Assembly (NCBI GenBank): GCA_030280995.1
Contig: JASXTE010000001.1
Location: 8,341,001-8,405,000, forward strand
Direction of reading: 5' to 3'
From: Hemileia vastatrix
Lineage: Eukaryota > Basidiomycota > Pucciniomycetes > Pucciniales > Zaghouaniaceae
DNA length: 64,000 nt
Both the position numbers and the translations under genes were made by a program. The first letter of the stretch is position 1; each line of letters opens with the position of its first letter. Below, in pieces: positions 13,644-61,259 of the stretch. The notes under the pieces are model-generated. The model made no database searches, was not told where the DNA came from, and was given only the letters and a program-made list of their open reading frames with translations.

Positions 13644-13737
13644 TAATTAATTAATTCAATTAAATTATAAGTTAAATTTTCATTTATGATTTATGATATA
13701 TGTTTCTAATTAATTAATTATTAATTTTCATTTATTA
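13644..13737. repeat. 94-bp direct repeat, left copy, flanking Harb1
   Basis: It is collinear with 20405-20498 over 94 bases, with about five substitutions and no indels. It ends exactly at the Harb1 terminus. Confidence 0.9.
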
Positions 13738-14008
13738 GGGGGTGTCAGTTCTGGAAAATCCGCACTTAAATAAGTGCGGATTTCCAATACACACTAGCCC
13801 CAATACTGGTGGATTTCAAAATGAAATAAGTTACTTATTTCACTCAAATCCACACTTTCTCAACCAAAAGTGCTGATTTCACCATCAAGTCCCATTTCAC
13901 TGATTTGTCAGCATCATCCCATTCATACGCAGCACTCCGCAGCATAACACTTCATAACTCAAAACATCGTACATCACTTACATCTTCATATCATATCATA
14001 TAAGAGTT

Positions 14009-15269
14009 ATGCCTTCCTCACTTTCGAATCGTGATAAATTACATAAAGCAATGACTTTCATGGCTCTTGAACTGCTCTTGGACTCTGATTCCGATTCTGA
14101 TCTAGAAGAAGATTTTGTTGTTTTATCAAAAATTGCCAGGAAACGTTACCTTCTTCCCAGAAAGCCTCAAGTACTTCATACCCCCAAGTACACCATCCAA
14201 ACACTTCTTAACCTATCTACACCCAGTATTAGACAGCTGTTCAGGACTTCTCAGGAATGTTTCCTTAAATTGCTTGAACTTATTCAGGATCATCCCATAT
14301 TTCACAATAATTCTCAAAAAGAACAACGACATCCTTCAATTCAATTGGCCATCACACTATGTCGTTTTGGGTTCAAATGGTAATGGAGCCGCTTTGAAAC
14401 GTTTAGAAAATGTCTTTGATTTAGGGTATGGTTCAGTTAACACTTATACCAAACGATGTATCACTGCCATCAACTCCTTGGAATCTCAACTTCTCACCTG
14501 GCCAACAAAAGAAGAGCAACTTGAATCATCTCAGGTTATGCAAGCAGAGGGCTTTCCAGGATGTATTGGTTTTGTTGATGGTACTACTATTCCTTTGAGC
14601 CAGAAAGCTGCTCAAGGTGGAAACAATTACTTTGACCGTAAAAAGAGGTAGATTATTTTTAACTCCTTTCATCCTCTTTGAAACTAACACAAACAAATAT
14701 ATCTTCTTTATAGATATTCAATTAACGTTCAGCTTATATGTGACGTAAACAAAAAATTTATATCATTCTTCGCTGGCTATCCTGGCTCATGTCATGACTC
14801 CTACGTCTTCCAAAGAATGCATATTTCAAATGAACCTGAAAAATTCTTTGATGAAGATCAGTATCTTCTTGCAGATTCTGCTTATGTGAATGGAAAGTAT
14901 GTACTTCCTGCTTTTCGGGGAGCAGCTTCAGAAGACAGTCAAAATGCCAAATTCAACAATCGTTTGACAAAGTCAAGAGTCCGTATTGAACATTCTATTG
15001 GAATATTGAAAGGCCCTTTTTCTATTTTAAGGGAATTAAGAAGTCCTCTTAGAAATAAATCTGAAATGGAGGCGGTGATCAACTGGATTCTGTGTTGCAC
15101 TATACTTCATAACCTACTTGCTGACCTCAAAGATCAATGGTTAGAGCTGTATGAAGATGAACAAGTTGATTCACCTCCGACTATATCCAACACTTCTATT
15201 TCTCAATCAACTAGTATAAGGGCAAAAACTCTTCCAATAACACTCCAACATTTTTCAACGCAATTTTAA
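14009..15269 (+). pseudogene. HARBI1-like DDE transposase (Harb1)
   Basis: This is a DDE_Tnp_4 nuclease of the PIF/Harbinger type, which cuts and joins the transposon ends. Exon 1 begins MPSSLSNRDKLHKAMTFMAL. A one-base shift near 14370 (CRFGFKW then stop, where Harb2 has CRFGSNGNG) breaks the frame. The reading continues in the next frame to FDRKKR at 14647. A 66-bp GT-AG intron (14648-14713) follows, then exon 2 (14714-15269). Catalytic motifs are visible: GFVDGTTIPL (first Asp), GSCHDSYVFQR (second Asp) and RIEHSIGILKG (Glu). Apart from the frameshift the coding sequence is complete, about the usual 350-420 residues. Confidence 0.88.
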
Positions 15270-16915
15270 TTTTTTTTTCTTTCTCTTCAAATTATCAATT
15301 TGCATGTGTTATTCACTGAGAATGGTAAATTTTTTTGCATATTTTTTTGGTTTTTGAATTTGCTGTGAAAGTCTTATTTTTTTTTCTCTCTGTGTTTTCT
15401 TTCATCAACTCAACATGAAATCGCATATTTTCAGCAAACGCATATTTTTTCAGTCAATCTCTTTTTTTTCTTCACTCATATCCGTTTTCTCCTCTCTTCC
15501 TACATCACTCAATCAATTTCACTTATATTTCTTTTTTCTCAACTCATCTCTCCAGGTAAGTCATTTTATTATTTTTACATAATTTTTTGCTAATTTTTTT
15601 TTTTTTGGTTTTTTGGTTTGTTTTTTTTTTTTGTTTTTTTTTTTTTTTTGTAAGTGGTTGTTTTTAAATTTATAGGTAAAATTAACCTTTTTTTTTCTCT
15701 CTCTTTCTCTCCCTCTTTTCTCTCTTTATCCCCCCTTGGCCTGGTCTTTTTCCCACCTTTACCCTCTCCTTGGAATGGATACATCCCCCTTTGGCTGCCT
15801 TATTCCCCCCTCCTTGGCTCACTCTAACCTCCCTTTTCTCCCTCTTTGGTCTCATCTTTCCCTTTCTCCCCCTTCTTGGTCTCCTCATATCTTCCCCTCA
15901 TTCCACTCCACCCCCCACCAAATCCCCCAAATCCTCCCTCCAAATCCCCACCAAACCCGCCTCTAACCCCCCCCTCCAAACCCCCCTCCTATCCCCCTTA
16001 AAACTCCCCCAAATCCTCCCTCATATCCCTCCTACCCCCCCCCCTTAAACTTCACTTAGCGATTCGTTAACAAATCTTTAAGTTAAGGAACGATTGCAGC
16101 GAATCGTTCGTTAACAAAACAATTCATTAGCGAATCATTAAGTTAATGAAAAATTGCAGCAAATCGTTCATTAACTTGACGATTCGCTAACAAATCGTTA
16201 ACTTAACGATTTGTTAGTGAATCATTAAGTTAATGAACGATTAGCAGCTATTGTTCATTAACTTTACAATTCGTTAGCGAATTGTTAAGTAAGTTGGAGG
16301 GGAGGTTAGGGGGGTTTAGAGGGACGTATTGGGGGGGGTTTCAAGGGGGATTTGGAGGGGGGTTAGAGGGAGTTTGGAGGGGGTGAAAGGAGGTGGATTG
16401 AAGGGGGTGTTTGGGGGGGTTTCAGGGGGTTTGGAGGGGGATTTGCAGGGGGGTTTGGAGGGGGATTTGGAGGGGGATTTGGAGGGGATTTGGAGGTGGT
16501 TTTGAAGGGGGGATTTGGGGGATTTGGTGGGGGGTGGAGGGGGGGTTTTCCAAGGGTTTTTGGGAGGTGGGAGAGGGCTTTGGAGAGGGGAATTTAGGGG
16601 AATGGGGAAGTGTTAAAAAAAAATTAACAGTTTATTGATTTTTTTTTTAATTTTAGAGAAAAATATTCATTAAGTTCAAGTGAAATAAAAAAAATTCTCA
16701 TTAGTCTTTTGAGGAATTTTTATTTTTTAATTTAAATTAAGTGAGTTTTTTTTAATGTATAATTTTGGGTGTTTGAAAAGTAACAAATTTTTAAGTAGAA
16801 AAATACATGACTTTAACTTCAGATTCACCACTTACCTCACTCTAATCTTCTTCAACTTCATTATCATCTTTAAATTCAGCTTCTTTTCAATCATCATCTA
16901 AAACATTGTCAAAAA
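15270..16915. repeat. Pyrimidine/purine foldback with palindromic core inside Harb1
   Basis: A C/T-rich arm (about 15680-16043, with CCCCCAAAT-type words) faces a G/A-rich arm (about 16291-16620, with GATTTGGAGGGGG-type words). Between them, 16044-16290 is a chain of near-palindromic words such as AACGATTCGTTAGCGAATCG and AAGTTAATGAACGATT. The two arms are roughly reverse complements, so the whole can fold back. ORFs read from the arms are low-complexity Lys/Arg/Pro or Gly/Trp strings and are not genes. 15270-15680 is T-rich, with no feature beyond a possible splice-like CAGGTAAGT near 15554. Confidence 0.7.
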
Positions 16916-16959
16916 ATGAACAGTATCGAAATAAAAGAAATTAAAAAATAAAAATTCAC

Positions 16960-17997
16960 TTGGATCAATTATTTGGCCATATTTCAAAAATCAAGTACTA
17001 TAAAACTAAAGTTGAAAGAAAAAAAAAATATCCGAAAACGTTACCTGAAAGTATACATTATTTAACTGAAACTGGAGGTGATGAAGTTAAAGCAGTTATT
17101 AATAATACTTTCAAACCTCAATTTATTTACGAAAACCATTCTTTTAATGGTTTAAAAGATGATTCATTTAATCAACTCTGTGATATCATCATAACACTCT
17201 ATCAAATGGCTTTGGTTTGCTTATCTTTAAGGAATAAGAATTTGTTGGTTGGAATCATGATTGGAATTGGATGGAGACCAGGATTTGTTAAAGGTTTTTC
17301 TCTTGGTATGTTTAAAGATTTTTCAGGATTTTTTAATATCATTTTACTGAATTTAATTCAAATAGGCATATATTCTTTACTCAGATCTTTATCTAAAGCT
17401 GAATTAGATAATGATTTTCGAAAATGGAATACTTTACCTTCATTTAATTCATTTATTACTCTTCGACTTAAAAAACTCTTCAATAAGGCTTTTGAAAAAA
17501 ATCATGAAGTTGCTATGAGATTTGGAATACCAAACTGGTGCGACTCTGAATAGGAAGATATTTGCAGAGATTATCTAATGTTTTCAAATGTTATAATCAC
17601 TCATTTTGGATTTCATAATCTAATTCACACCGACACAAATGATGCCAATTACCTCACTTATGGAACTTTTACATATATTCATCCTATCACTGGACAACCT
17701 ATTCCATCACCTGCTAAAATTAAAGGACATGGATTATATTTCCCGGATCATAGATGTATAATAGATTTTGGATTAAGAAATGGAATCATCGAAACAGTTT
17801 GGAATTCTTCTTACGATAATCACCAAACCACAAAGGCTCCTCCAGGCTTGGAAACTTGTCAAGACTTCACGCATTTTGGTTGCTCTTTCCAGATCAGTCA
17901 AAAGTTAATCCAACGAATAAACAAGTTAAAAAAAGAAGAAAAAGGTAATAAATTTAAATATTATTTGGGTAGATCTAAAAAGTATGGGTATTTGTAG
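16960..17997 (+). pseudogene. Tet/JBP-like 2OG-Fe(II) oxygenase (Harb1 passenger)
   Basis: The reading runs in one frame for ~345 codons, broken by a single TAG at 17551-17553, where the Harb2 homologue has a Trp codon (CDSE-stop-EDI versus CDFKWEDI). The C-terminal half carries GFHNLIHTDTNDANYLTYGT, with HTD as the likely HxD iron-binding pair, then GHGLYFPDH and a distal His in DNHQTTKAPPG. This order resembles the Tet-like 2OG-Fe(II) oxygenase family expanded in rust fungi. Tet/JBP enzymes oxidise 5-methylpyrimidines in DNA using 2-oxoglutarate and O2; the substrate here is unknown. The first displayed codon is TTG, so the true start, perhaps in an upstream exon, is unresolved. Confidence 0.72.
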
Positions 17998-18059
17998 AGT
18001 CACCAAATATTTAATATTCTTCCATAAATTTTTAATAAATAAATATGATATTTCAATTT

Positions 18060-18240
18060 ATGAAATTAAAGTAATGGGCCCACGACCTTGTGTTGTATAA
18101 ATGGTAATCATGAAACATTAATTTGTTTCATGGGGTTCCTCTAGCCTATACTTGTGGAAAGTCCCAAACCTAGTTTCTAGACTTGATCTGCATTTTGGCT
18201 TAAGGAATTGTCATTACTTTAAAAGTATTATATTTGACAT
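18060..18240 (+). other. Conserved non-coding or C-terminal block after the oxygenase gene
   Basis: The block beginning AAGTAATGGGCCCACGACC and containing TTTCATGGGGTTCCTCTAGCC and TGTGGAAAGTCCCAAAC is also found at 50122-50280 in Harb2, although the two elements are otherwise well diverged. Frames differ between copies, so a regulatory or 3'-UTR role is as likely as coding. Confidence 0.6.
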
Positions 18241-18285
18241 ATCTTATTTATATATTAATTAATTTATGTAATTATATTAAATTTT

Positions 18286-18560
18286 GATGACTTTCACCCT
18301 TTACTTCAATAAAATGCAGTGGAGGGTATTGCCAATTTTTTAAATCTGACATGTGAAATTGATGACTTAGAAAAATTTGGTGGTACCCACCCCTTGTTTC
18401 AATAAAATGCAGGGGAGGGTATTGCCAATTTTTTAAATCTGACATGTGAAATTGATGACTTAGAAAAATTTGGTGGTACCCACCCCTTGTTTCAATAAAA
18501 TGTAGGGGAGGGCATTGTCAATTTTTTAAATTTGACATGTGAAATTGATGACTTAGAAAA
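18286..18560. repeat. 93-bp tandem minisatellite in Harb1 (about three units)
   Basis: The unit contains CACCCCTTGTTTCAATAAAA, TGCAGGGGAGGGTATTGCCA, GACATGTGAAATTGATGACT and TTAGAAAAATTTGGTGGTAC. The period is 93 bases (18388 to 18481). Homologous, more diverged units lie at 50341-50760 in Harb2. Confidence 0.9.
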
Positions 18561-18733
18561 ATTTAGATAAGCAAACTTATTGACTAGAAAGTAAAGATAG
18601 AAAATTTTTTTTATAAATTCAAATTGTTGTCAAAAATAACGTACTATATTCTTTTCCTTATATAAATCAGCATATAAGAAAATATTAACAAAAAGAAATC
18701 AAACAAAATTAAATTAACTAGAAAAACAATTTA

Positions 18734-20048
18734 TCAATTGAAAAGGTCAAGTAATTTTTTAATGTCCTCATAAGATTGGCCATTTTTAACACATTCCATA
18801 ATGAAATCTTTTTTTTAAAAACTCTCTTGTTTTTCCAATTCACAAGTAGCCATTTTTCTTTGAAATTGACGGTCATTTACTCTTTCCATCTGCTCTACCT
18901 CAAATTTTTTTTCTTCCAAATCTAAGGCTTGCTGATCTTTCCTTAGCATATGATCAAACTTCATCTTCTCAAAGTCAAGGGCATTATTTGCAATAGTTGA
19001 TTTCGCTGAGAAAATTAAATTGAAATAAATAAATAAATGAGTTAATGATTAAGATATATAGTAAACAAAACTTACTTATATCTTTTTTTTCAAAATAATC
19101 CTGAAGGGAGCCAAATGAGCTTGTTGAAGTATTACCACGTTTTAATAGATGGTTCAAGTTCATTGAAGTTGAGGCTCGACGCTTTAGTTTGGAGTTTGAA
19201 CAAGAGGCTTCAGGAAGTTCTTCTAAAGCAGCTTCTAAAGAGGTATTCACATTTCCAGAATTGAGATTATTTAATGGAGATTGAGTTTGAGTAGGAGGAG
19301 ACTAGAAAGAAAGAGAAATTCAGAGAAGAATTGAAGAAAAAACAAAAAGTAAACATACATTTAAATTTTGGGCCTCTGAGGATTCAGATCTTCTGCGATA
19401 TAATTGTTCTGCTTGATAGTTGGGATCATCTTCAGCTGAACTATGGCTAGAAGGTGGAGGGGATTGATCTTCTTCAAGTAAAGGTGTGTTGGGAGGATTA
19501 TGGGAAGGTTTGGATCCAGAGGGTATATGCTTAGTAGTATCGTGTAGAAACCAAGGGTTTACATCAACTCGGGTGCTAAAAAGATTATCCATTTCCTCAT
19601 AGAAAGGACACATGACATTGAGCTTTTTGGAAACAGTAGTAATTCCAATCTCCAAATCATCATCGTCAATACCAAAGCCAGTTTCATTTACAGCATGATG
19701 AGTCTTTTTATATTTTGAATGGTAACTCTTAAATCTCTCCTTCATTTGTTTAGGATTGATATCGATTCTCCCCCTTTTTTTCTTCCTTACTTCATTGGCC
19801 ATCAACAAGTAGCCATTAACCTTTGAAGAAGGTGGACGTCCAATACGAGTGGACTTTTCACATCCAAAACATGCTTCAAAATTTGATTTTATTTTAAGGA
19901 AGTTGATTATGATGAGATAATCATCCTTTTTAAGCTGACCTGAACCTGCCTTTGATTTTTCAGGTGTAGGGCTTGCTTTACGAGGAGACTTTTGTGACAA
20001 AGCAGATTTTTGAGTTACCTTTTGAGATTTGGAATGTCTGGGAGGCAT
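18734..20048 (-). pseudogene. SANT/Myb-like coiled-coil protein (Harb1 second ORF)
   Basis: Harbinger transposons usually carry a SANT/Myb-like DNA-binding partner of the transposase, and this is its likely equivalent. Exons fit GT-AG rules with consistent phase: 20048-19359 (starts MPPRHSKSQKVTQKSA), 19301-19076 and 19005-18734, with introns GTATGT...TAG and GTAAGT...CAG. Exon 1 holds a helical domain with LKKDDYLIIINFLKIKSNF, then GRPPSSKVNGYLLMANEVR and QMKERFKSYHSKYKK. Exon 3 is a charged coiled coil (DFEKMKFDHMLRKDQQALDL). A TAA at 18815-18817 interrupts the coiled coil ~27 codons before a second stop, where Harb2 homology continues. It may merely shorten the protein. Confidence 0.75.
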
Positions 20049-20404
20049 TATGAAACTGGCACATAACAAGAAAAAAGATTAAAAAGTAGAAGAAATAAGT
20101 AAAAAAGAATGTAAACATGCCTGGTCAAAATATTGAAAATGTCAGGAAGGGGTGTGTGCCGAGGATTGATGGGTAGGTAGCGAGGAAGGTCAGTGTGTCA
20201 CATGTTACAGGGATGGGGTAAGAAAGGAAGGGATGTTTTGTGGCCAAAATGTGGTTGTGAAAAAAAACGGGAAAAAAGTGCTGATTTGAGGTCATAACTG
20301 ACACCCTTTTTTGAAATAAGTGACTTTTTTGCAAAATTTAAGTGCTTATTTGGTTTGAAATCCGCACTTAATTTAAGTGCGGATTTGCCAGAACTGACAC
20401 CCCC

Positions 20405-20498
20405 TAATTAATTAATTTAATTACATTATAAGTTAAATTTTCATTTATAATTTATTATATATGTTTGTAATTAATTAATTATTAATTTTCATTTATTA
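20405..20498. repeat. 94-bp direct repeat, right copy, flanking Harb1
   Basis: It begins exactly after the right Harb1 terminus and repeats 13644-13737 with about five substitutions. Such a long duplication is not a normal Harbinger target-site duplication. Confidence 0.9.
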
Positions 20499-46517: not shown

Positions 46518-46896
46518 GGGGGTATCAATGTTCAGGGATCCTCAATTAGGGATCAGTAATTTTTTTCCCCGGGATCAGACATTATTAATTGCGGAAGATT
46601 CTTATCCACTAGCCCCAGGGCTAGTGGATAAGAAATCCACGATAATACATTATCCCGCCTCTTATACCCCAATTTCCATTCCTAATTCCTGATCCCAAAC
46701 TCATCTCATCCATGATGGATTTGCAAGAAAGTCACATGACTCATAATTGCTGATTCCATCCTTAAGTCTTTCCTCACTCTATGCTACTTAATTTTGGTGG
46801 CAAACACTTAAGTTTTTTTTCTATCTACACACCCCAACTGCACATTTGGCGGTGAATTCCCACTTCCCTCATCACATAACCCTTCCACCGGCAACA

Positions 46897-48159
46897 ATGA
46901 AACACCTCTCTACTAGACAGCTACTTCACTCCACTATTAATGCCGTCACTTTACTTTTAGTTCTCTACTATAAATCTGACTCTGATTTGGAAGATGCTTT
47001 AGCTTATATGTGTTTACTTTCCAAAAAGTGTTACATCATCACCAGGGGGCCAAATCTTTATCATGATCCCCGATATGATCTGGCCTCCATTCTCAACATT
47101 CCTCATTTAAACTTCACCCAACTTTTTAGAACTTCTCCCGATTCTTTCTTCAAACTTTATCAACTCATTTCTGAACATCCTATCTTCCATAACAATTCTC
47201 ATAACAAACAGCGTAATCCTTCCATCCAACTTGCTGTTGCTCTATGTCGCTTTGGCTCAAATGGAAATGGTGCTGCCGTAAGACGTTTGGATAATCTCTT
47301 TAACATAGGATATGGTACCGTGATATTATACACCAAGCGCTGTATGATTGCTATCCTTTCCCTCAAGTCTCAAACTCTTGCTTGGCCAACTCCAGAACAG
47401 CGACTTGAATCCTCTCAAGTAATGCAAGCTGAAGGTTTCCCTGGCTGTGTAGGATTTGTTGATGGCACAACTATACCTTTGAGTCAAAAGCCTGCTCATG
47501 ATGGCAACCATTATTTTGATCGCAAAAAAAGGTTTCTTCCAAATCTTCTCCAAGTTCTCATCTTTTACAATCTAACTTTTTATCTTCTTTCTAGATACTC
47601 TATCGCCGTTCAACTTGTATGTGATGTCAATAAAAAATTTATTGCTTTTCACAGTGGCTGCCCTGGATCATGTCATGACTCTTCCGTCTTCCAAAGAATG
47701 AGGATTTCTCAATCCCCTGACTCATACTTTGACGAATCTCAGTACCTCCTTGCAGACTCAGCATATGCAAGTGGAAAGTACATTATACCTGCTTTCCGTG
47801 GTGCAACTTCAGAAAATGACCCCAAAACTTCCTTTAATTATCACCTTGCACAATCAAGAGTACAAATTGAACATGCTATAGGTATTTTAAAGGGACAATT
47901 TTCTAGTCTTTGGGAGCTCAGAATCCAATTTCAAAAAAAATTGGAGATCAAAACTGCAAATCATTGGATCTTGACTTGTGTAATACTCCACAATATTCCA
48001 GCTGATTTAAAGGATGAGTGGAATGATCTTTATGTAGAAGAGGATCCTGAACCACCACCGGCACTCCCCTCCCTTGATTCACAAATCATTCAATCAACTG
48101 GCATAAGCTCCATTATAATGCCAATTACTCTCCAACATTTCACTTTGCAACGCTTTTAA
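46897..48159 (+). CDS. HARBI1-like DDE transposase (Harb2)
   Basis: This would cut and insert Harb elements in the nucleus. From ATG 46897 (MKHLSTRQLLHSTINAVTLL) the frame is open to 48159, about 420 codons. The catalytic motifs are GCVGFVDGTTIPLSQ (Asp), GCPGSCHDSSVFQRMR (Asp) and VQIEHAIGILKGQF (Glu). A GT-AG intron of 63 bp (47532-47594) lies exactly where Harb1 has its 66-bp intron. Because it is a multiple of three and has no stop, the ORF reads through it. Removal joins FDRKKR to YSIAVQLVCDV, as in Harb1. No disabling change is seen, so this may be the one potentially working transposase of the family here. Confidence 0.88.
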   Translation: MKHLSTRQLLHSTINAVTLLLVLYYKSDSDLEDALAYMCLLSKKCYIITRGPNLYHDPRYDLASILNIPHLNFTQLFRTSPDSFFKLYQLISEHPIFHNNSHNKQRNPSIQLAVALCRFGSNGNGAAVRRLDNLFNIGYGTVILYTKRCMIAILSLKSQTLAWPTPEQRLESSQVMQAEGFPGCVGFVDGTTIPLSQKPAHDGNHYFDRKKRFLPNLLQVLIFYNLTFYLLSRYSIAVQLVCDVNKKFIAFHSGCPGSCHDSSVFQRMRISQSPDSYFDESQYLLADSAYASGKYIIPAFRGATSENDPKTSFNYHLAQSRVQIEHAIGILKGQFSSLWELRIQFQKKLEIKTANHWILTCVILHNIPADLKDEWNDLYVEEDPEPPPALPSLDSQIIQSTGISSIIMPITLQHFTLQRF

Positions 48160-49403
48160 TTTTTAATTTTTATGTTTTCATACTTTCCAAATGTCCTCTT
48201 TGTGTACTTTATTCACTTGGTTTTATATTTTGGTTTGTTGCATATTCATTTTTTTTTTGAATTTATGGTGAATATCTTTTTTTTGGATGGCTCATTGGTT
48301 TTCTTTCACCAGCTCAACATGAAATCACATATTTTCTGAAATTGCATATTTTGTCAGTGATTTTTTTTTTCATTCATCCCTCATATCCTTTTCCTATTCT
48401 CCTCCAACATCCCTCAAACAATTTGGTTTCATTCATTTTGTCATCTCATCTCTCCAGGTAAGTCATTTTATTCTTTTTTTTTGATTTTTTGATTACTAAT
48501 TATAATTTTTTTTGTTTTTTTCTGTTTATTTTATTTTTTTTATCTAAATTTTTTTTGTAAGTGGTTATTTTGGATTTCAATGGTATAATTAACCTTTTTT
48601 TCTCTCCCTCTTTACTTTCTCTTTTAGCTCCATCACCCTACTCTTCATCCCTCCTTGGCATTGTCATTATCCCCCCTTTCCCTTATTTCACTTTTTTTTG
48701 GCTCCATTTCATTGAAACACATACATTGCACATTCTTGATGCATTTCACTTACTCCATATTCAATTTCCCCACAATTCCAACATCAATCTTTCTCACTCT
48801 ATTTTTCCTACTTTTCAATCAAGGTAAGTTTCATCTCCTTTTTTTCATGTCTATATGATATCTCATTCCTTTTATGAAAACTTCATACTTAAATATATGT
48901 ATGACTCTTATCTGGATAACAGTGAACTTATAAAACTCCTTTTGATCTCATCTTCATTACCACTTTTCAAGTTTTTGTAAAATTTTGAAAATCAGACTCG
49001 GAATTAGGGTTAGGTTAATTCAAATCTAATGTTCTTTTTACTGAAGATTCTCCTGAAGGCTACCTTTCATTTCCTGCAAACAGATTTGAATTTGATTCAG
49101 TGGTTGCTGGGATATTGACTGTTAAAGTTGAGCCTTTTTTTTTGCAATTTAAATTTTTATTTCATTTTTTTATGTAACAAATTAGGGTTAGGTTTATTTA
49201 AATCACATGTCCTTTAACTGAAGATTCTACTAAAGCATATCTTTCATTTCCCACAAACAGGTTTGAATTAGGTTCAGTGGTTGCTGAGATTTTGACCTTT
49301 GAAGTTGAGCCTTTTTTCCAAATTTCACTTATCTTATTTCACATTTTTATATTGCATATTTAGAGGATAAGGATTCTGAAACTCTTATATGATTATTATC
49401 TAG
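48160..49403. repeat. Harb2 spacer with C/T-rich tract and a duplicated ~130-bp unit
   Basis: 48590-48840 is C/T-rich and matches the start of the Harb1 pyrimidine arm (15680-15740), but the purine arm is missing. Two direct copies of a unit beginning AATTAGGGTTAGGTT and ending AAAGTTGAGCC or GAAGTTGAGCC lie at 49002-49134 and 49190-49311. Reverse-complement copies lie in the relic at 31418-31900. No gene is seen. Confidence 0.7.
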
Positions 49404-50154
49404 GCATTTCAATCATATAGGCATATATTCGTTGGTCAAGAATATCACTAAAGCTCAAAAAGATGAAGATTTTCGCTTATGGGACATTCTACCTTCCTTT
49501 AACGCTTTACTTGCTTTTCGACTCAAAAAGCTCTGTAATAAAGCATTTGAAGAAAATCATGAACTTGCAACCAAAGTTGGAATACCGAACTGGTGTGACT
49601 TCAAATGGGAAGATATCAGCCACAAATATCTTTTATTCTCTAATGTTATTATCACTCATTCTGGATTCCACAATAGGATTCATATTGATAGGAATGATGC
49701 CAATTTTCTTACTTTTGGAATATTCTCATATATCAATCCGATAACTGGCCACCCAATACCATCTCCAGATAAAATCAAAGGACATGGTTTATATTTTCCA
49801 GACCACTGGTGCATCATTGATTTTGGTTTGGGAAATGGTATCATCGAAACTATTTGGAATTCATCTAAGGATAATCATCAAACGACCAAAGCTCCTCCTG
49901 GTTTGGAATCCTGTCAAGATTTCACACATTTTGGTTGCTCATTTCAAATCAGTAATAAGTTGATACAAAAAATCAATAAGGTAATGAAAGAAGGTAAAGT
50001 TAATCAATTTAAAAAAAAAATTTTAGATCCAAAAAGTATGGGGATTAGAGTTGTCATCGAAAATTTTATATTTTTTCGTAAATTTTTAATAAATATTTTT
50101 TATGTATCAATTTCCTCAACAAAAGTAATGGGCCAACAAACTTGTGTTGTATAA
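49404..50154 (+). pseudogene. Tet/JBP-like 2OG-Fe(II) oxygenase, 5'-truncated (Harb2 passenger)
   Basis: The open reading begins in HIGIYSLVKNITKAQKDEDF, just after a splice-acceptor-like TATCTAG at 49397-49403, and corresponds to the last two thirds of the Harb1 gene. The ~130 upstream residues seen in Harb1 are absent. The iron-binding features are present: HIDRNDANFL (HxD), the GHGLYFPDHWCIIDFG core, and DNHQTTKAPPG (distal His). The Trp codon that became a stop in Harb1 is intact (CDFKWEDI). The enzyme would be a Tet-like DNA or RNA base oxygenase, with substrate unproven. A missing first exon may lie in the spacer, but I could not find it, so I call it truncated. Confidence 0.7.
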
Positions 50155-50280
50155 ATGGTAATCATGATAACATTTATTTGTTTCATGGGGTTCCTCTAGC
50201 CTATACCTGTGGAAAGTCCCAAACTTTTTTTTCTAGACTTGGTCTGCATTTTCGTTTGAGGGATTGTCATTACTTTAAAC
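50122..50280 (+). other. Conserved block after the oxygenase gene
   Basis: This is the counterpart of 18060-18240, with shared TTTCATGGGGTTCCTCTAGCC and GTGGAAAGTCCCAAAC. It overlaps the last codons of the oxygenase reading. Confidence 0.6.
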
Positions 50281-50340
50281 TAGTGAAATTGATATATATT
50301 AGATATTTATTTAATAATTTACGTAATTCTATTAAATTTA

Positions 50341-50760
50341 GATGACTTCCACCCCTTACTTCAATAAAATGCAGGGGGGGGGTAATGCCAAATTTTCAAA
50401 TCTGACATGTGAAATTGATGACTTAGAAAAATTTTGGTGATACCCACCCCTTGCTTCAATAAAATGCAGGGGAGAGTATTGCCAATTTTTTAAAACAGAT
50501 ATAGAATTTTTTTGACTTGTAAATATTTTGGTGATACCCATCCCTTACTTCAATAAAATTCATGGGGGGTTTTGCCAAAATTTCTTATAAGACTTGTGAA
50601 ATTCTTGACATGTAAGAATTTTTGGGATACCAGTAAAATGCAGGAGGTAGTAAAGCCAAATTTTCATATAAGACTTTCAAGATTCATGACATGAAAGAAT
50701 TTTCGTGATACCCACCCCTTACTTCAAAAAAAATCCAGGGGTGGGGGATCGTCAAATTTT
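50341..50760. repeat. Degenerate tandem minisatellite in Harb2
   Basis: About five diverged units built on CACCCCTTACTTCAATAAAA, TGCAGGGG and GACATGTGAAATTGATGAC. It occupies the same place as the 93-bp array of Harb1 (18286-18560). Confidence 0.85.
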
Positions 50761-50880
50761 CAAAGGAGACATGAAAATTTTATTTAAAAAAAGTGGTAGA
50801 GTAATGAAATAAAGGAAATTATTGGAAATTTTATGTACAAATAATTATGAACAGTTGAAGTGTGAGAAAAATAAAACAAA

Positions 50881-52281
50881 CTAGTCATCCAACAATTTCT
50901 TTAAACGTTCAATTTAATCAACAGATTTATTAGCTTTAACACATTCTATCAAGAAATCTTTCTTTTTGGAATTTTCTTCATGATCAAACTTATATTTCAT
51001 CTGCTCTAATAGGTTTTGATGTTCAAGTGTTTTCTCCTCTTTTTTTGATTTTTCAATACTTAGAGTTAACTCAAACTTCTTCTCCTCCAAATCTTGGGCC
51101 CGATCATCCTTCCATAAAGAGAGCTGGTACTTCCTCTCCTCCAAATCTTGGGCCCGATCATCCTTCTGTAAAGAGAGCTTGTACTTCCTCTCTTCCAAAT
51201 TTTGTAGCCTATCATCCCTCCTTAAAGAGAGCTCATATTTTTGCTTTTAAAACTTTAGAGTCTCTTTAGCAGCTTCCACTTGTTCTAGAGTGATAAGCAA
51301 TGTTAACAAAAAGTAGAAGAAAAGCAGAGTAAAGTATTAATAGGTATGGTATCACTTACCAGCATCACGTTTCTCTAAAAGTTGTTCCATAGACGAAAAA
51401 GGGGTTTGTGATGAAGTATCACTTTTTTGTCTTCTTTGGGAGTGGAAATTTAGACTACTTGAAGCCCTTCGCTTTTTGTTCAACATAGAATTTTCCTCCT
51501 CATCATTGTCACTAGCTTCAGACTCAGTTGATTGTGGGTCCTGGGCTTGTTCATCAGCCTTTTAAGAAATGAGAAAATCTAAGTAAATAAAAAAAAGTAT
51601 TGATAAGATAAAAGAAAAAAAACAGACCTGAGTTAGATTGGGTTGGGTTAAATCGCCAATAGGATCAGTAGCAAAGCTATCTAGATTTGTAGAATTTAGA
51701 AGAGGGGAGGCTTGAGTGGAGGAAGAGGATGGGAAAAGATTTGCTTCGACATCATGTTTGGAGATAGGATCTTCACCATCCAACATGTTTACAGGATTAG
51801 CATTGGCTCGCTCTCCAATAATTGCATCCATCTCTTTAAAGTAAGGACATAAAGTTTCAAGTTTATCGTCTATGGATTTTATGCCCTTAGTTATATTGTT
51901 GTCGGTAACCCCAAAACCAGTGGAAGATGAAAGAGCCTTTGCCTTCTTGTATTTTGCTCGGTAATGCTTGAATCGCTCAGACATCTGTTTAGGCAAAAGA
52001 TCAATCCTTCCCTTGGTCTTATTCCATAATTCATTTGCCATTAAAAGATAGCCATTAACTTTTGATGCGGGGGGCTGTCCTACTTTAGTGACATACTCAG
52101 TACCAAAACAAGAATCATAGTTAGATTTGGTTTTCAGCCAGTTGATAAGAATGAGATGTTCATCTTTTTTTAATTGAACGGTCTTTGATTTCTTGGCTGA
52201 GAAGGGGAAAGAGGAAGTAGTGGGAATTTAAGAACAACTGGGTGATGTCTGCCTTTGAGAAGATCTAGGATGACGAGGCAT
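50881..52281 (-). pseudogene. SANT/Myb-like coiled-coil protein (Harb2 second ORF)
   Basis: This reads from ATG 52281 (MPRHPRSSQRQTSPSCS), with a TAA at 52228-52230. It then has the conserved LKKDEHLILINWLKTKSNYD, GQPPASKVNGYLLMANELW and QMSERFKHYRAKYKK segments. A GTCTGT-type donor after NLTQ and a GTAAGT donor after LLEKRDA mark introns matching Harb1. The last exon is a coiled coil with a 20-residue unit repeated (EERKYKLSLQKDDRAQDL, EERKYQLSLWKDDRAQDL, then EEKKFELTLSIEKSK), but TAA codons at about 51247 and 50914 interrupt it before the homologous end at 50881. It is the probable DNA-binding partner of the transposase, now broken. Confidence 0.75.
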
Positions 52282-52683
52282 GTTATTATAAATGAAGATG
52301 AAAAGGAGAAGAAACAAGCAGATGAGATAGCGAGATGAAAAGGAGCAGAATAAAATAGATGAAATGGGGAGAAATTCTGAGCAGATAGAATGAACAGGAT
52401 GGGATGAGAATGGAAGTGCGCAGCAAGGTAGAAGGCATATCCAGGGAGTAGTCCAAGATGTGGTTATGGCAGAAAGTAGGTCAAGATGTGGTTATGACAG
52501 AAGGTTGTCCGATATGTGGTTATGAAAAATAGAGTAAAAAAATGTCAGATAAGAGGTGAACATTGACACGTAAAGTGTCTAATAACCCAATTATTAGCAA
52601 AAATAATTGCGGAAGATAATTGGGGTATGAAGATTATTTTCCGCAATTAATTTAATTGCAGATCGGTCAAAATTGATACCCCC

Positions 52684-61052: not shown

Positions 61053-61259
61053 GGGGGTATCAAAGTTGTAAGTCCTTCATTTCAAAATGCCTCTTTTTTC
61101 CCCTAATCAACCATGATTATTTATTAAAATATGAAATATTGTGCCCCAAAAAACCTTTTTACTGAGAGTTAATTTCAAGTTAATGTCAAGTTTGTGGCTT
61201 TGATTTTGTGTTGTAAAATACCTTTTAAAAAATTACAAATTCCTAACTTTGATACCCCC
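61053..61259. mobile_element. Harb-family MITE, 207 bp
   Basis: The 15-bp perfect terminal inverted repeats are GGGGGTATCAAAGTT. TA lies on both sides (61051-61052 and 61260-61261). There is no coding sequence. The end sequence matches Harb2 (GGGGGTATCAA), so a Harb transposase could have mobilised it. It is inserted in Gypsy C between IPQ and the KDLQSFL connection segment. Confidence 0.9.

What the first reader, a model, noticed from the sequence alone, without database searches (positions are those of the whole stretch)
13738..20404. Harbinger-type transposon carrying a Tet/JBP-like oxygenase plus a SANT partner
One transposon, delimited by clear inverted ends, contains a HARBI1-like transposase, a Tet-like 2OG-Fe(II) oxygenase gene and a SANT/Myb-like protein. 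Tet/JBP genes in fungi have been linked mainly with KDZ-type transposons; a PIF/Harbinger carrier would be a different association. Oxidation of 5-methylcytosine at the element or its target could be an anti-silencing strategy. The gene content is seen directly; the substrate and role are inferred.
Basis: partly seen in the sequence, partly recalled or inferred. Interest (0 to 1): 0.88.

Follow-up and report, generated by a model that had tools for sequence, protein, structure and literature searches.

The report
Transposon carrying a TET-like DNA oxygenase
A very abundant jumping gene of a large fungal genome carries, beside its transposase, a TET-like enzyme that probably removes silencing marks from DNA; such TET-carrying Harbinger elements were already described in rust fungi in 2025, and this report adds evidence that the enzyme is under strong selection and details that differ from the published description.

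Summary
Window 13738-20404 is one PIF/Harbinger element with a DDE_Tnp_4 transposase, a TET-like oxygenase (PF20515, two pieces split by a stop) and a reverse-strand SANT-like gene. It is not chance nesting: all 6 long copies fetched hold the three genes, and a diverged second element, 46518-52683, repeats the layout. The family is huge (5,172 exact TIR ends). Between the two elements the oxygenase is the most conserved protein (dN/dS 0.08); copies show 17-30 times more C>T change at CpG than at other C sites, as expected of methylated DNA.
The association is not new: Kojima 2025 (PMC12730594) reports TET+ Harbinger ('PHISTA') in rusts. Two details differ. Four insertions with empty sites fit 3-bp AWT duplications, not TA. 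The third protein weakly matches Myb_DNA-bind_4, below cut-off. A 154-nt noncoding block after the oxygenase is 91% conserved against 58% at third codon positions.
Against an in-cis need, many equally similar copies lack the oxygenase. Structure models failed. Substrate and role remain inferred.

The parts
13738..20404 (+). TET-carrying PIF/Harbinger element, el1 (first G of left TIR to last C of right TIR)
   Evidence: TIRs; other full copies; empty sites of other copies suggest that the element also owns the outer A and T
13738..13771 (+). left terminal inverted repeat
   Evidence: (I6)
20371..20404 (-). right terminal inverted repeat
   Evidence: (I6)
14010..15269 (+). HARBI1-like DDE transposase, two exons (about 14010-14650 and 14714-15269, bounds inferred); frame broken in exon 1 of this copy
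   Evidence: DDE_Tnp_4 3.1e-25; open 230-aa and 193-aa frames in other copies
16945..17997 (+). TET-like 2OG-Fe(II) oxygenase; in-frame stop at 17551-17553 in this copy; HxD and distal H motifs present
   Evidence: PF20515 in both pieces; 393-aa open frame in other copies, PF20515 1.3e-31
18069..18222 (+). conserved noncoding block directly after the oxygenase frame
   Evidence: 140 of 154 identical between el1 and el2 against 119 of 206 third codon positions; 3,151 matches to its core pattern genome-wide; no coding signature; structure not supported by covariation
18279..18564 (+). three tandem 93-bp repeats, each with AATAAA on the oxygenase strand
   Evidence: (D4); similar repeats after other oxygenase genes
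18815..20048 (-). SANT/Myb-like protein with a coiled-coil-like last exon (by eye); exon bounds inferred
   Evidence: Myb_DNA-bind_4 0.0022, below cut-off; relatives
15690..16600 (.). C-rich/G-rich imperfect inverted repeat between transposase and oxygenase
   Evidence: I1-I5; matched in varied form in other copies
46518..52683 (+). second TET-carrying Harbinger element, el2, same gene order
   Evidence: TIRs; genes; main matched stretches 69-79% identical to el1
46792..48159 (+). el2 transposase
   Evidence: DDE_Tnp_4 1.9e-25
49393..50154 (+). el2 TET-like oxygenase, main exon
   Evidence: PF20515 4.7e-29
51562..52227 (-). el2 SANT-like protein
   Evidence: Myb_DNA-bind_4 0.0064, below cut-off
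61053..61259 (.). 207-bp MITE with the same kind of ends, beside a gypsy-like pol frame (frame judged by eye)
   Evidence: empty sites

Best explanation
It is a PIF/Harbinger DNA transposon of a rust-like fungus that encodes its transposase, a SANT-like protein and a TET-like dioxygenase (PU type in Kojima's terms, by analogy). Shown: gene content, repeated layout, strong purifying selection on the oxygenase, methylation-like mutation of the copies. Inferred: transposase and SANT-like protein bind the ends and cut and paste; the oxygenase oxidises 5-methylcytosine on element copies and so counters host methylation, helping the whole family, including copies that lost the gene.
For: Three genes in one TIR-bounded unit in the window and in 6 of 6 long copies, and in a diverged second family. 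Of the first 12 places on contig C2 that match the 3' block core, 10 have the oxygenase directly upstream. el1 (copy L033) against el2: oxygenase exon 2 dN 0.12, dS about 1.5 (near saturation), ratio 0.08; transposase exons dN 0.28 and 0.31; SANT-like dN 0.38. HxD kept in 13 of 14 and distal His in 13 of 13 aligned rows with letters there (rows chosen by family score). C>T at CpG against other C sites, distinct places only: 0.083 against 0.0049 (oxygenase part, 13 places), 0.048 against 0.0016 (SANT part, 13), 0.040 against 0.0019 (transposase part, 14), so the DNA looks methylated.
Against: No enzyme assay and no usable fold: AlphaFold mean pLDDT 33.7 for the oxygenase, 44.9 for the SANT-like protein. 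The PDB profile search found no oxygenase, only two chance-like transporter hits, and none for the SANT-like protein. Copies without the oxygenase are common at the same similarity: of 9 non-window transposase-picked loci 6 lack it, 1 has it, 2 are undetermined; of 9 SANT-picked loci 6 show none in the stretch held and 3 have it. CpG mutation is high despite the oxygenase. Against a more distant oxygenase clade (L004) dN/dS is weaker, 0.23. DNA methylase PF00145 was found only on four small contigs.
Confidence: 0.65

Rival explanations
1. The oxygenase is a passenger: a host gene or a separate TET transposon that happens to sit inside one Harbinger copy.
For: TET-like genes are very numerous here (10,849 first-look candidates for PF20515, 150 scored), and oxygenase-less copies are common.
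Against: Same place and orientation in 6 of 6 long copies and in el2; dN/dS 0.08 between families. No dedicated search for a nested element around the gene was made.
Confidence: 0.05
2. The oxygenase acts on another substrate or step: for example oxidised bases as an active mark at the donor or target site, thymine, N6-methyladenine or RNA, rather than removal of 5mC silencing.
For: Substrate untested; Kojima notes that other cytosine or thymine modification cannot be excluded and that CcTET also acts on 6mA.
Against: The CpG mutation signature suggests that a 5mC substrate is present on the copies; characterised relatives named by Kojima mostly oxidise 5mC, CMD1 being an exception.
Confidence: 0.2
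3. The oxygenase gene serves its own spread: the module (oxygenase, 3' block, tandem repeats) moves by recombination between Harbinger families and is kept because it works in trans for any carrier.
For: L074, L077 and L079 are a chimeric, transposase-truncated derivative: el1 ends and transposase exon 1 (95-96%) joined to an inverted el2-type oxygenase module (91-92%). Kojima reports transfers between superfamilies.
Against: Compatible with the main reading; no independent transposition of the module was seen in the loci held.
Confidence: 0.25

Closest known systems
TET+ Harbinger families ('PHISTA') of Puccinia and Austropuccinia (Kojima 2025, PMC12730594; abstract, passages, sections 1, 3.1, 3.4, first part of 4, legends)
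   Same: Harbinger transposase, TET/JBP dioxygenase and a third protein inside one TIR element of rust fungi; TA seen just outside the ends.
   Different: Here four insertions with empty sites fit a 3-bp AWT duplication. The third protein has a weak Myb/SANT match in both families, whereas Kojima states that none contains one.
Nuwa-type PIF/Harbinger elements (as described in Kojima 2025)
   Same: Transposase plus Myb/SANT-like protein; 3-bp duplication.
   Different: An added TET-like gene; no transposase tree was made here.
KDZ transposons with TET/JBP genes (Kojima 2025; Iyer et al. cited there and recalled, not read)
   Same: TET/JBP dioxygenase carried by a DNA transposon.
   Different: Unrelated transposase superfamily and ends.
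VANDAL anti-silencing of plant MuDR elements (as cited in Kojima 2025; mechanism recalled)
   Same: A transposon-encoded factor thought to relieve its own silencing.
   Different: Not a dioxygenase (recalled); no target motif is shown here.

Membership tests
PIF/Harbinger superfamily | DDE_Tnp_4 (HARBI1-like) transposase | tested here: met
   3.1e-25 in el1, 1.9e-25 in el2
PIF/Harbinger superfamily | terminal inverted repeats | tested here: met
PIF/Harbinger superfamily | 3-bp target site duplication | tested here: met
   AWT in 10 of 11 end pairs, the window el1 pair being the exception (read; L041 shifted by one base for an extra G). Of 11 insertions joined, 3 (L042, L044, L014) have a gap-free empty site under the 3-bp reading only; the MITE's one weak match (L017, 71%) fits neither reading; 7 have no junction-spanning match. 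MITE in the genome: 35 matches for 3 bp, all at the 3-mismatch limit, 0 for TA
PIF/Harbinger superfamily | Myb/SANT partner protein | tested here: inconclusive
   Myb_DNA-bind_4 below cut-off in el1 and el2; 9 of 9 relatives hit it at E up to 1, but 4 of these had been picked by that profile; model pLDDT 44.9; profile comparison with one protein that passes the cut-off gave probability 0.2%
PHISTA (TET+ Harbinger of Kojima 2025) | TET/JBP gene inside the element | tested here: met
PHISTA (TET+ Harbinger of Kojima 2025) | duplication of TA only | tested here: not met
   TA flanks 44 of 46 distinct ends, but empty sites fit 3 bp
PHISTA (TET+ Harbinger of Kojima 2025) | transposase clusters with PHISTA in a tree | not tested
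TET/JBP 2OG-Fe(II) oxygenases | family profile match | tested here: met
   PF20515 1.3e-31 for an open frame of another copy
TET/JBP 2OG-Fe(II) oxygenases | HxD...H iron-binding motif | tested here: met
   13 of 14 and 13 of 13 rows of A1 with letters there; meaning of the motif from Kojima
TET/JBP 2OG-Fe(II) oxygenases | double-stranded beta-helix fold | tested here: inconclusive
   model pLDDT 33.7, not usable
TET/JBP 2OG-Fe(II) oxygenases | oxidation of 5-methylcytosine | not testable with these tools
   needs an assay

The most novel reading that the evidence does not exclude
The transferable unit is a cassette: oxygenase plus a 154-nt conserved noncoding block and AATAAA-bearing tandem repeats. 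The block is a cis-acting element (RNA control element, or a site that guides the oxygenase or SANT-like protein to element DNA) kept across oxygenase clades. In addition, the 'TA' duplications of TET+ Harbingers are really 3-bp AWT, so these are Nuwa-like Harbingers with a SANT-like partner rather than a separate TA-duplicating lineage.
Probability: 0.3. Interest if true: 0.65.

Novelty: new member of a known kind. Interest (0 to 1): 0.5.

Why it matters
It supports, from an independent genome, the claim that rust transposons recruit TET enzymes, and adds evidence on function: between two families the oxygenase changes less at the protein level than the transposase, and the copies carry a methylation-type mutation signature. 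The 3-bp duplication and the SANT-like partner bear on how TET+ Harbingers are classified. The conserved block gives a concrete new target for study.

Tried and rejected
Structure prediction of the oxygenase and SANT-like protein: both models too poor to search with; no fold search was made. Protein database searches gave no relatives, so the sequence comparisons are within this genome. Viral contigs: no relative. The species could not be named; rust-like is inferred from the oxygenase type and Kojima's distribution.

The 154-nt block as a structured RNA: el1 folds well (z -4.4), but el2 and L002 stand out less (z -1.2 and -1.9). On 24 close sequences 0 of 42 pairs have a double change and the measures equal the shuffles. 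On 15 sequences with the distant clade, 2 of 13 predicted pairs have double changes, in 3 related sequences. No Rfam match at gathering level; 23 matches below it, none within the block. No tRNA. As a coding exon: no frame shows a coding signature. I first took L074, L077 and L079 for a third Harbinger family; they are chimeric derivatives with transposase exon 1 only in the stretch held.

TA as the duplication: rejected for the four insertions with empty sites. The L044 site is only 75% similar, and the MITE matches are all at the mismatch limit. Weaker matches of L042 (window, L011, L021, L049) have gaps under both readings, fewer under 3 bp. 5-bp and 4-bp readings fit only some end pairs (by eye).
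Full report
What is there. The window lies at G000:C26:8341001-8405000 of an unnamed 747.6-Mb genome in 791 contigs. Exact inverted ends GGGGGTGTCA sit at 13738 and 20404. Between them are, in order: a transposase on the + strand (DDE_Tnp_4), a C-rich/G-rich inverted repeat, an oxygenase on the + strand in two open pieces split by a stop at 17551-17553, both matching PF20515, a noncoding stretch with three 93-bp tandem repeats, and a gene on the - strand whose first exon weakly matches Myb_DNA-bind_4 (0.0022, below cut-off). The transposase of this copy also has a frame break in exon 1; in other copies the frame is open.

It is one element. Six long copies were fetched, five from the oxygenase hit list and one from the transposase list; 6 of 6 hold transposase, oxygenase and SANT-like parts in the same order, and five show both exact ends (L046 shows one). 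A second element in the window, 46518-52683, has the same order and orientations; its three main matched stretches are 69.6, 78.7 and 69.3% identical.

Abundance and decay. Exact matches to a 26-nt TIR end number 5,172, with 0 for the reversed control. Of the first 100 listed, all on contig C2, 32 form + then - pairs within 12 kb; lengths run from 2.6 to 7.4 kb with median 3.5 kb, and 16 of the 32 contain the core of the noncoding block. So in this sample most pairs are shorter than the 6.7-kb window element. Among loci picked by transposase (L012-L020, 9 without the window), 1 has the oxygenase, 6 lack it and 2 are undetermined within the 1.5 kb held; among those picked by the SANT part (L022-L030, 9), 3 have it and 6 show none in the stretch held. 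In these lists, which are capped at the 40 best, oxygenase-less forms are as similar to the window (98-99%) as the others.

Selection. Between el1 (copy L033) and el2, oxygenase exon 2 has dN 0.12 and dS 1.5, ratio 0.08; transposase exons have dN 0.28 and 0.31 (ratios 0.12 and 0.09); the SANT-like domain has dN 0.38 (ratio 0.20). Against the more distant clade of L004 the oxygenase gives dN 0.33, ratio 0.23. Synonymous sites are near saturation, so the ratios are rough, but by dN the oxygenase is the most conserved of the three proteins between el1 and el2. An enzyme useless to the element would not be kept this way (inference).

Methylation signature. Counting each place once, C>T (or G>A) change against the majority is 17, 30 and 21 times more frequent at CpG than at other C or G sites in the oxygenase (13 places), SANT (13) and transposase (14) parts (one search gave similar rates with some loci counted twice). 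CpG observed/expected is 0.39 in el1, 0.33 in el2, 0.79 in a long copia frame and 0.07-0.10 in three gypsy stretches. This fits deamination of 5mC; it also shows that the oxygenase does not abolish it, and no control family of equal age was compared. A DNA methylase profile hit only four small contigs; this search cannot prove absence. Two other small contigs (C470, C177) carry metazoan-looking proteins by eye, so some small contigs may be contaminants.

Target duplication. Of 46 distinct ends in hand, 44 have TA outside (49 of 51 with overlapping loci), and genome-wide 5,124 of 5,172 do. But in 10 of 11 end pairs the next bases pair up as AWT on both sides if the outer A and T are counted as element (read; L041 shifted by one base for an extra G). 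The exception is the window el1 itself, which is flanked by a 94-bp direct repeat, 89 of 94 identical. Of 11 insertions whose flanks were joined, three match an unoccupied site without a gap only under the 3-bp reading: L042 (97.7% over 175 bases, in L005), L014 (85.7%, in the window) and L044 (75.4%, in the window); the TA reading leaves a 3-base gap in each. The MITE gave one weak match (L017, 71%) with gaps under both readings (3 for TA, 6 for 3 bp), and seven gave none. In the genome the MITE's 3-bp joined 30-mer has 35 matches, all with the allowed maximum of 3 mismatches, and the TA 33-mer has none. I read the TA as the last base of the duplication plus the first base of the element.

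The 3' block. From 18069 to 18222, 140 of 154 bases are identical between el1 and el2, against 119 of 206 third codon positions in the oxygenase next to it. A more distant oxygenase clade (L002, L009, L061) keeps a 75-nt core at 81-85%; five of the 20 further oxygenase loci fetched (L055, L057, L062, L067, L071) and eight of L001-L010 show no core. The core pattern occurs 3,151 times with 0 for the reversed control; of the first 12 by position, 10 have the oxygenase directly upstream. It is not coding by substitution pattern. A structure is not supported by covariation in close sequences, although el1 folds better than shuffles. I read it as a conserved part of the oxygenase's 3' region of unknown action.

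Exchange of the module. L074, L077 and L079 join el1 ends and transposase exon 1 to an inverted el2-type oxygenase module, evidence of recombination between families.

The SANT-like protein. Myb_DNA-bind_4 is hit below its cut-off in el1 and el2 and in 9 of 9 relatives at E up to 1, best 3.3e-5; four of the nine (L049-L052) had been picked with that profile. Genome-wide no element-type hit passes the cut-off among the 150 scored. The model was poor, and a profile comparison with one protein that passes the cut-off gave 0.2%. The label stays tentative.

Comparison with what is known. Kojima 2025 (PMC12730594; abstract, passages, sections 1, 3.1, 3.4, first part of 4 and legends) reports TET/JBP genes in seven transposon lineages of rusts including fifteen Harbinger families, named PHISTA for their TA duplications, with a third protein said to lack a Myb/SANT domain, and proposes escape from methylation. 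The present element is the same kind. Among the rows listed by my further searches (capped lists, listings only) I saw no other paper on TET+ Harbingers. A 2025 survey of rust repeats (PMC12210899, passages) reports RIP-like signatures in less than 0.5% of each genome, DNMT5 in all species studied and DNMT1 in all but P. hordei.

How it most likely works. Shown: content, layout, selection, CpG signature. From established knowledge of Harbinger elements (recalled): transposase and Myb-like protein act together on the ends. Inferred: the oxygenase oxidises 5mC on element DNA and relieves silencing, acting in trans on derivatives. I put this at 0.65.

Noticed in passing
window 13644-13737 and 20405-20498: A 94-bp direct repeat (89 of 94 identical) abuts both ends of el1; the two sides do not share the AWT duplication seen in other copies.
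   Followed up: partly
window 18279-18564; L001, L003, L004, L006, L008: The 93-bp tandem repeats with AATAAA recur downstream of oxygenase genes of another clade, suggesting a shared 3' end.
   Followed up: partly
window 15690-16600: A long C-rich/G-rich imperfect inverted repeat lies between transposase and oxygenase and aligns only in part between copies.
   Followed up: no
L074, L077, L079: Amplified chimeric derivative of el1 and el2 with transposase exon 1 only and an inverted oxygenase module.
   Followed up: yes
G000 contigs C470 and C177 (L047, L048): Small contigs with metazoan-looking Myb proteins (by eye); possible contamination of the assembly.
   Followed up: no
L042, L005: L042's insertion has a 98% similar unoccupied copy of its target about 1 kb from the oxygenase match in L005, so the target is itself a repeat.
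   Followed up: no
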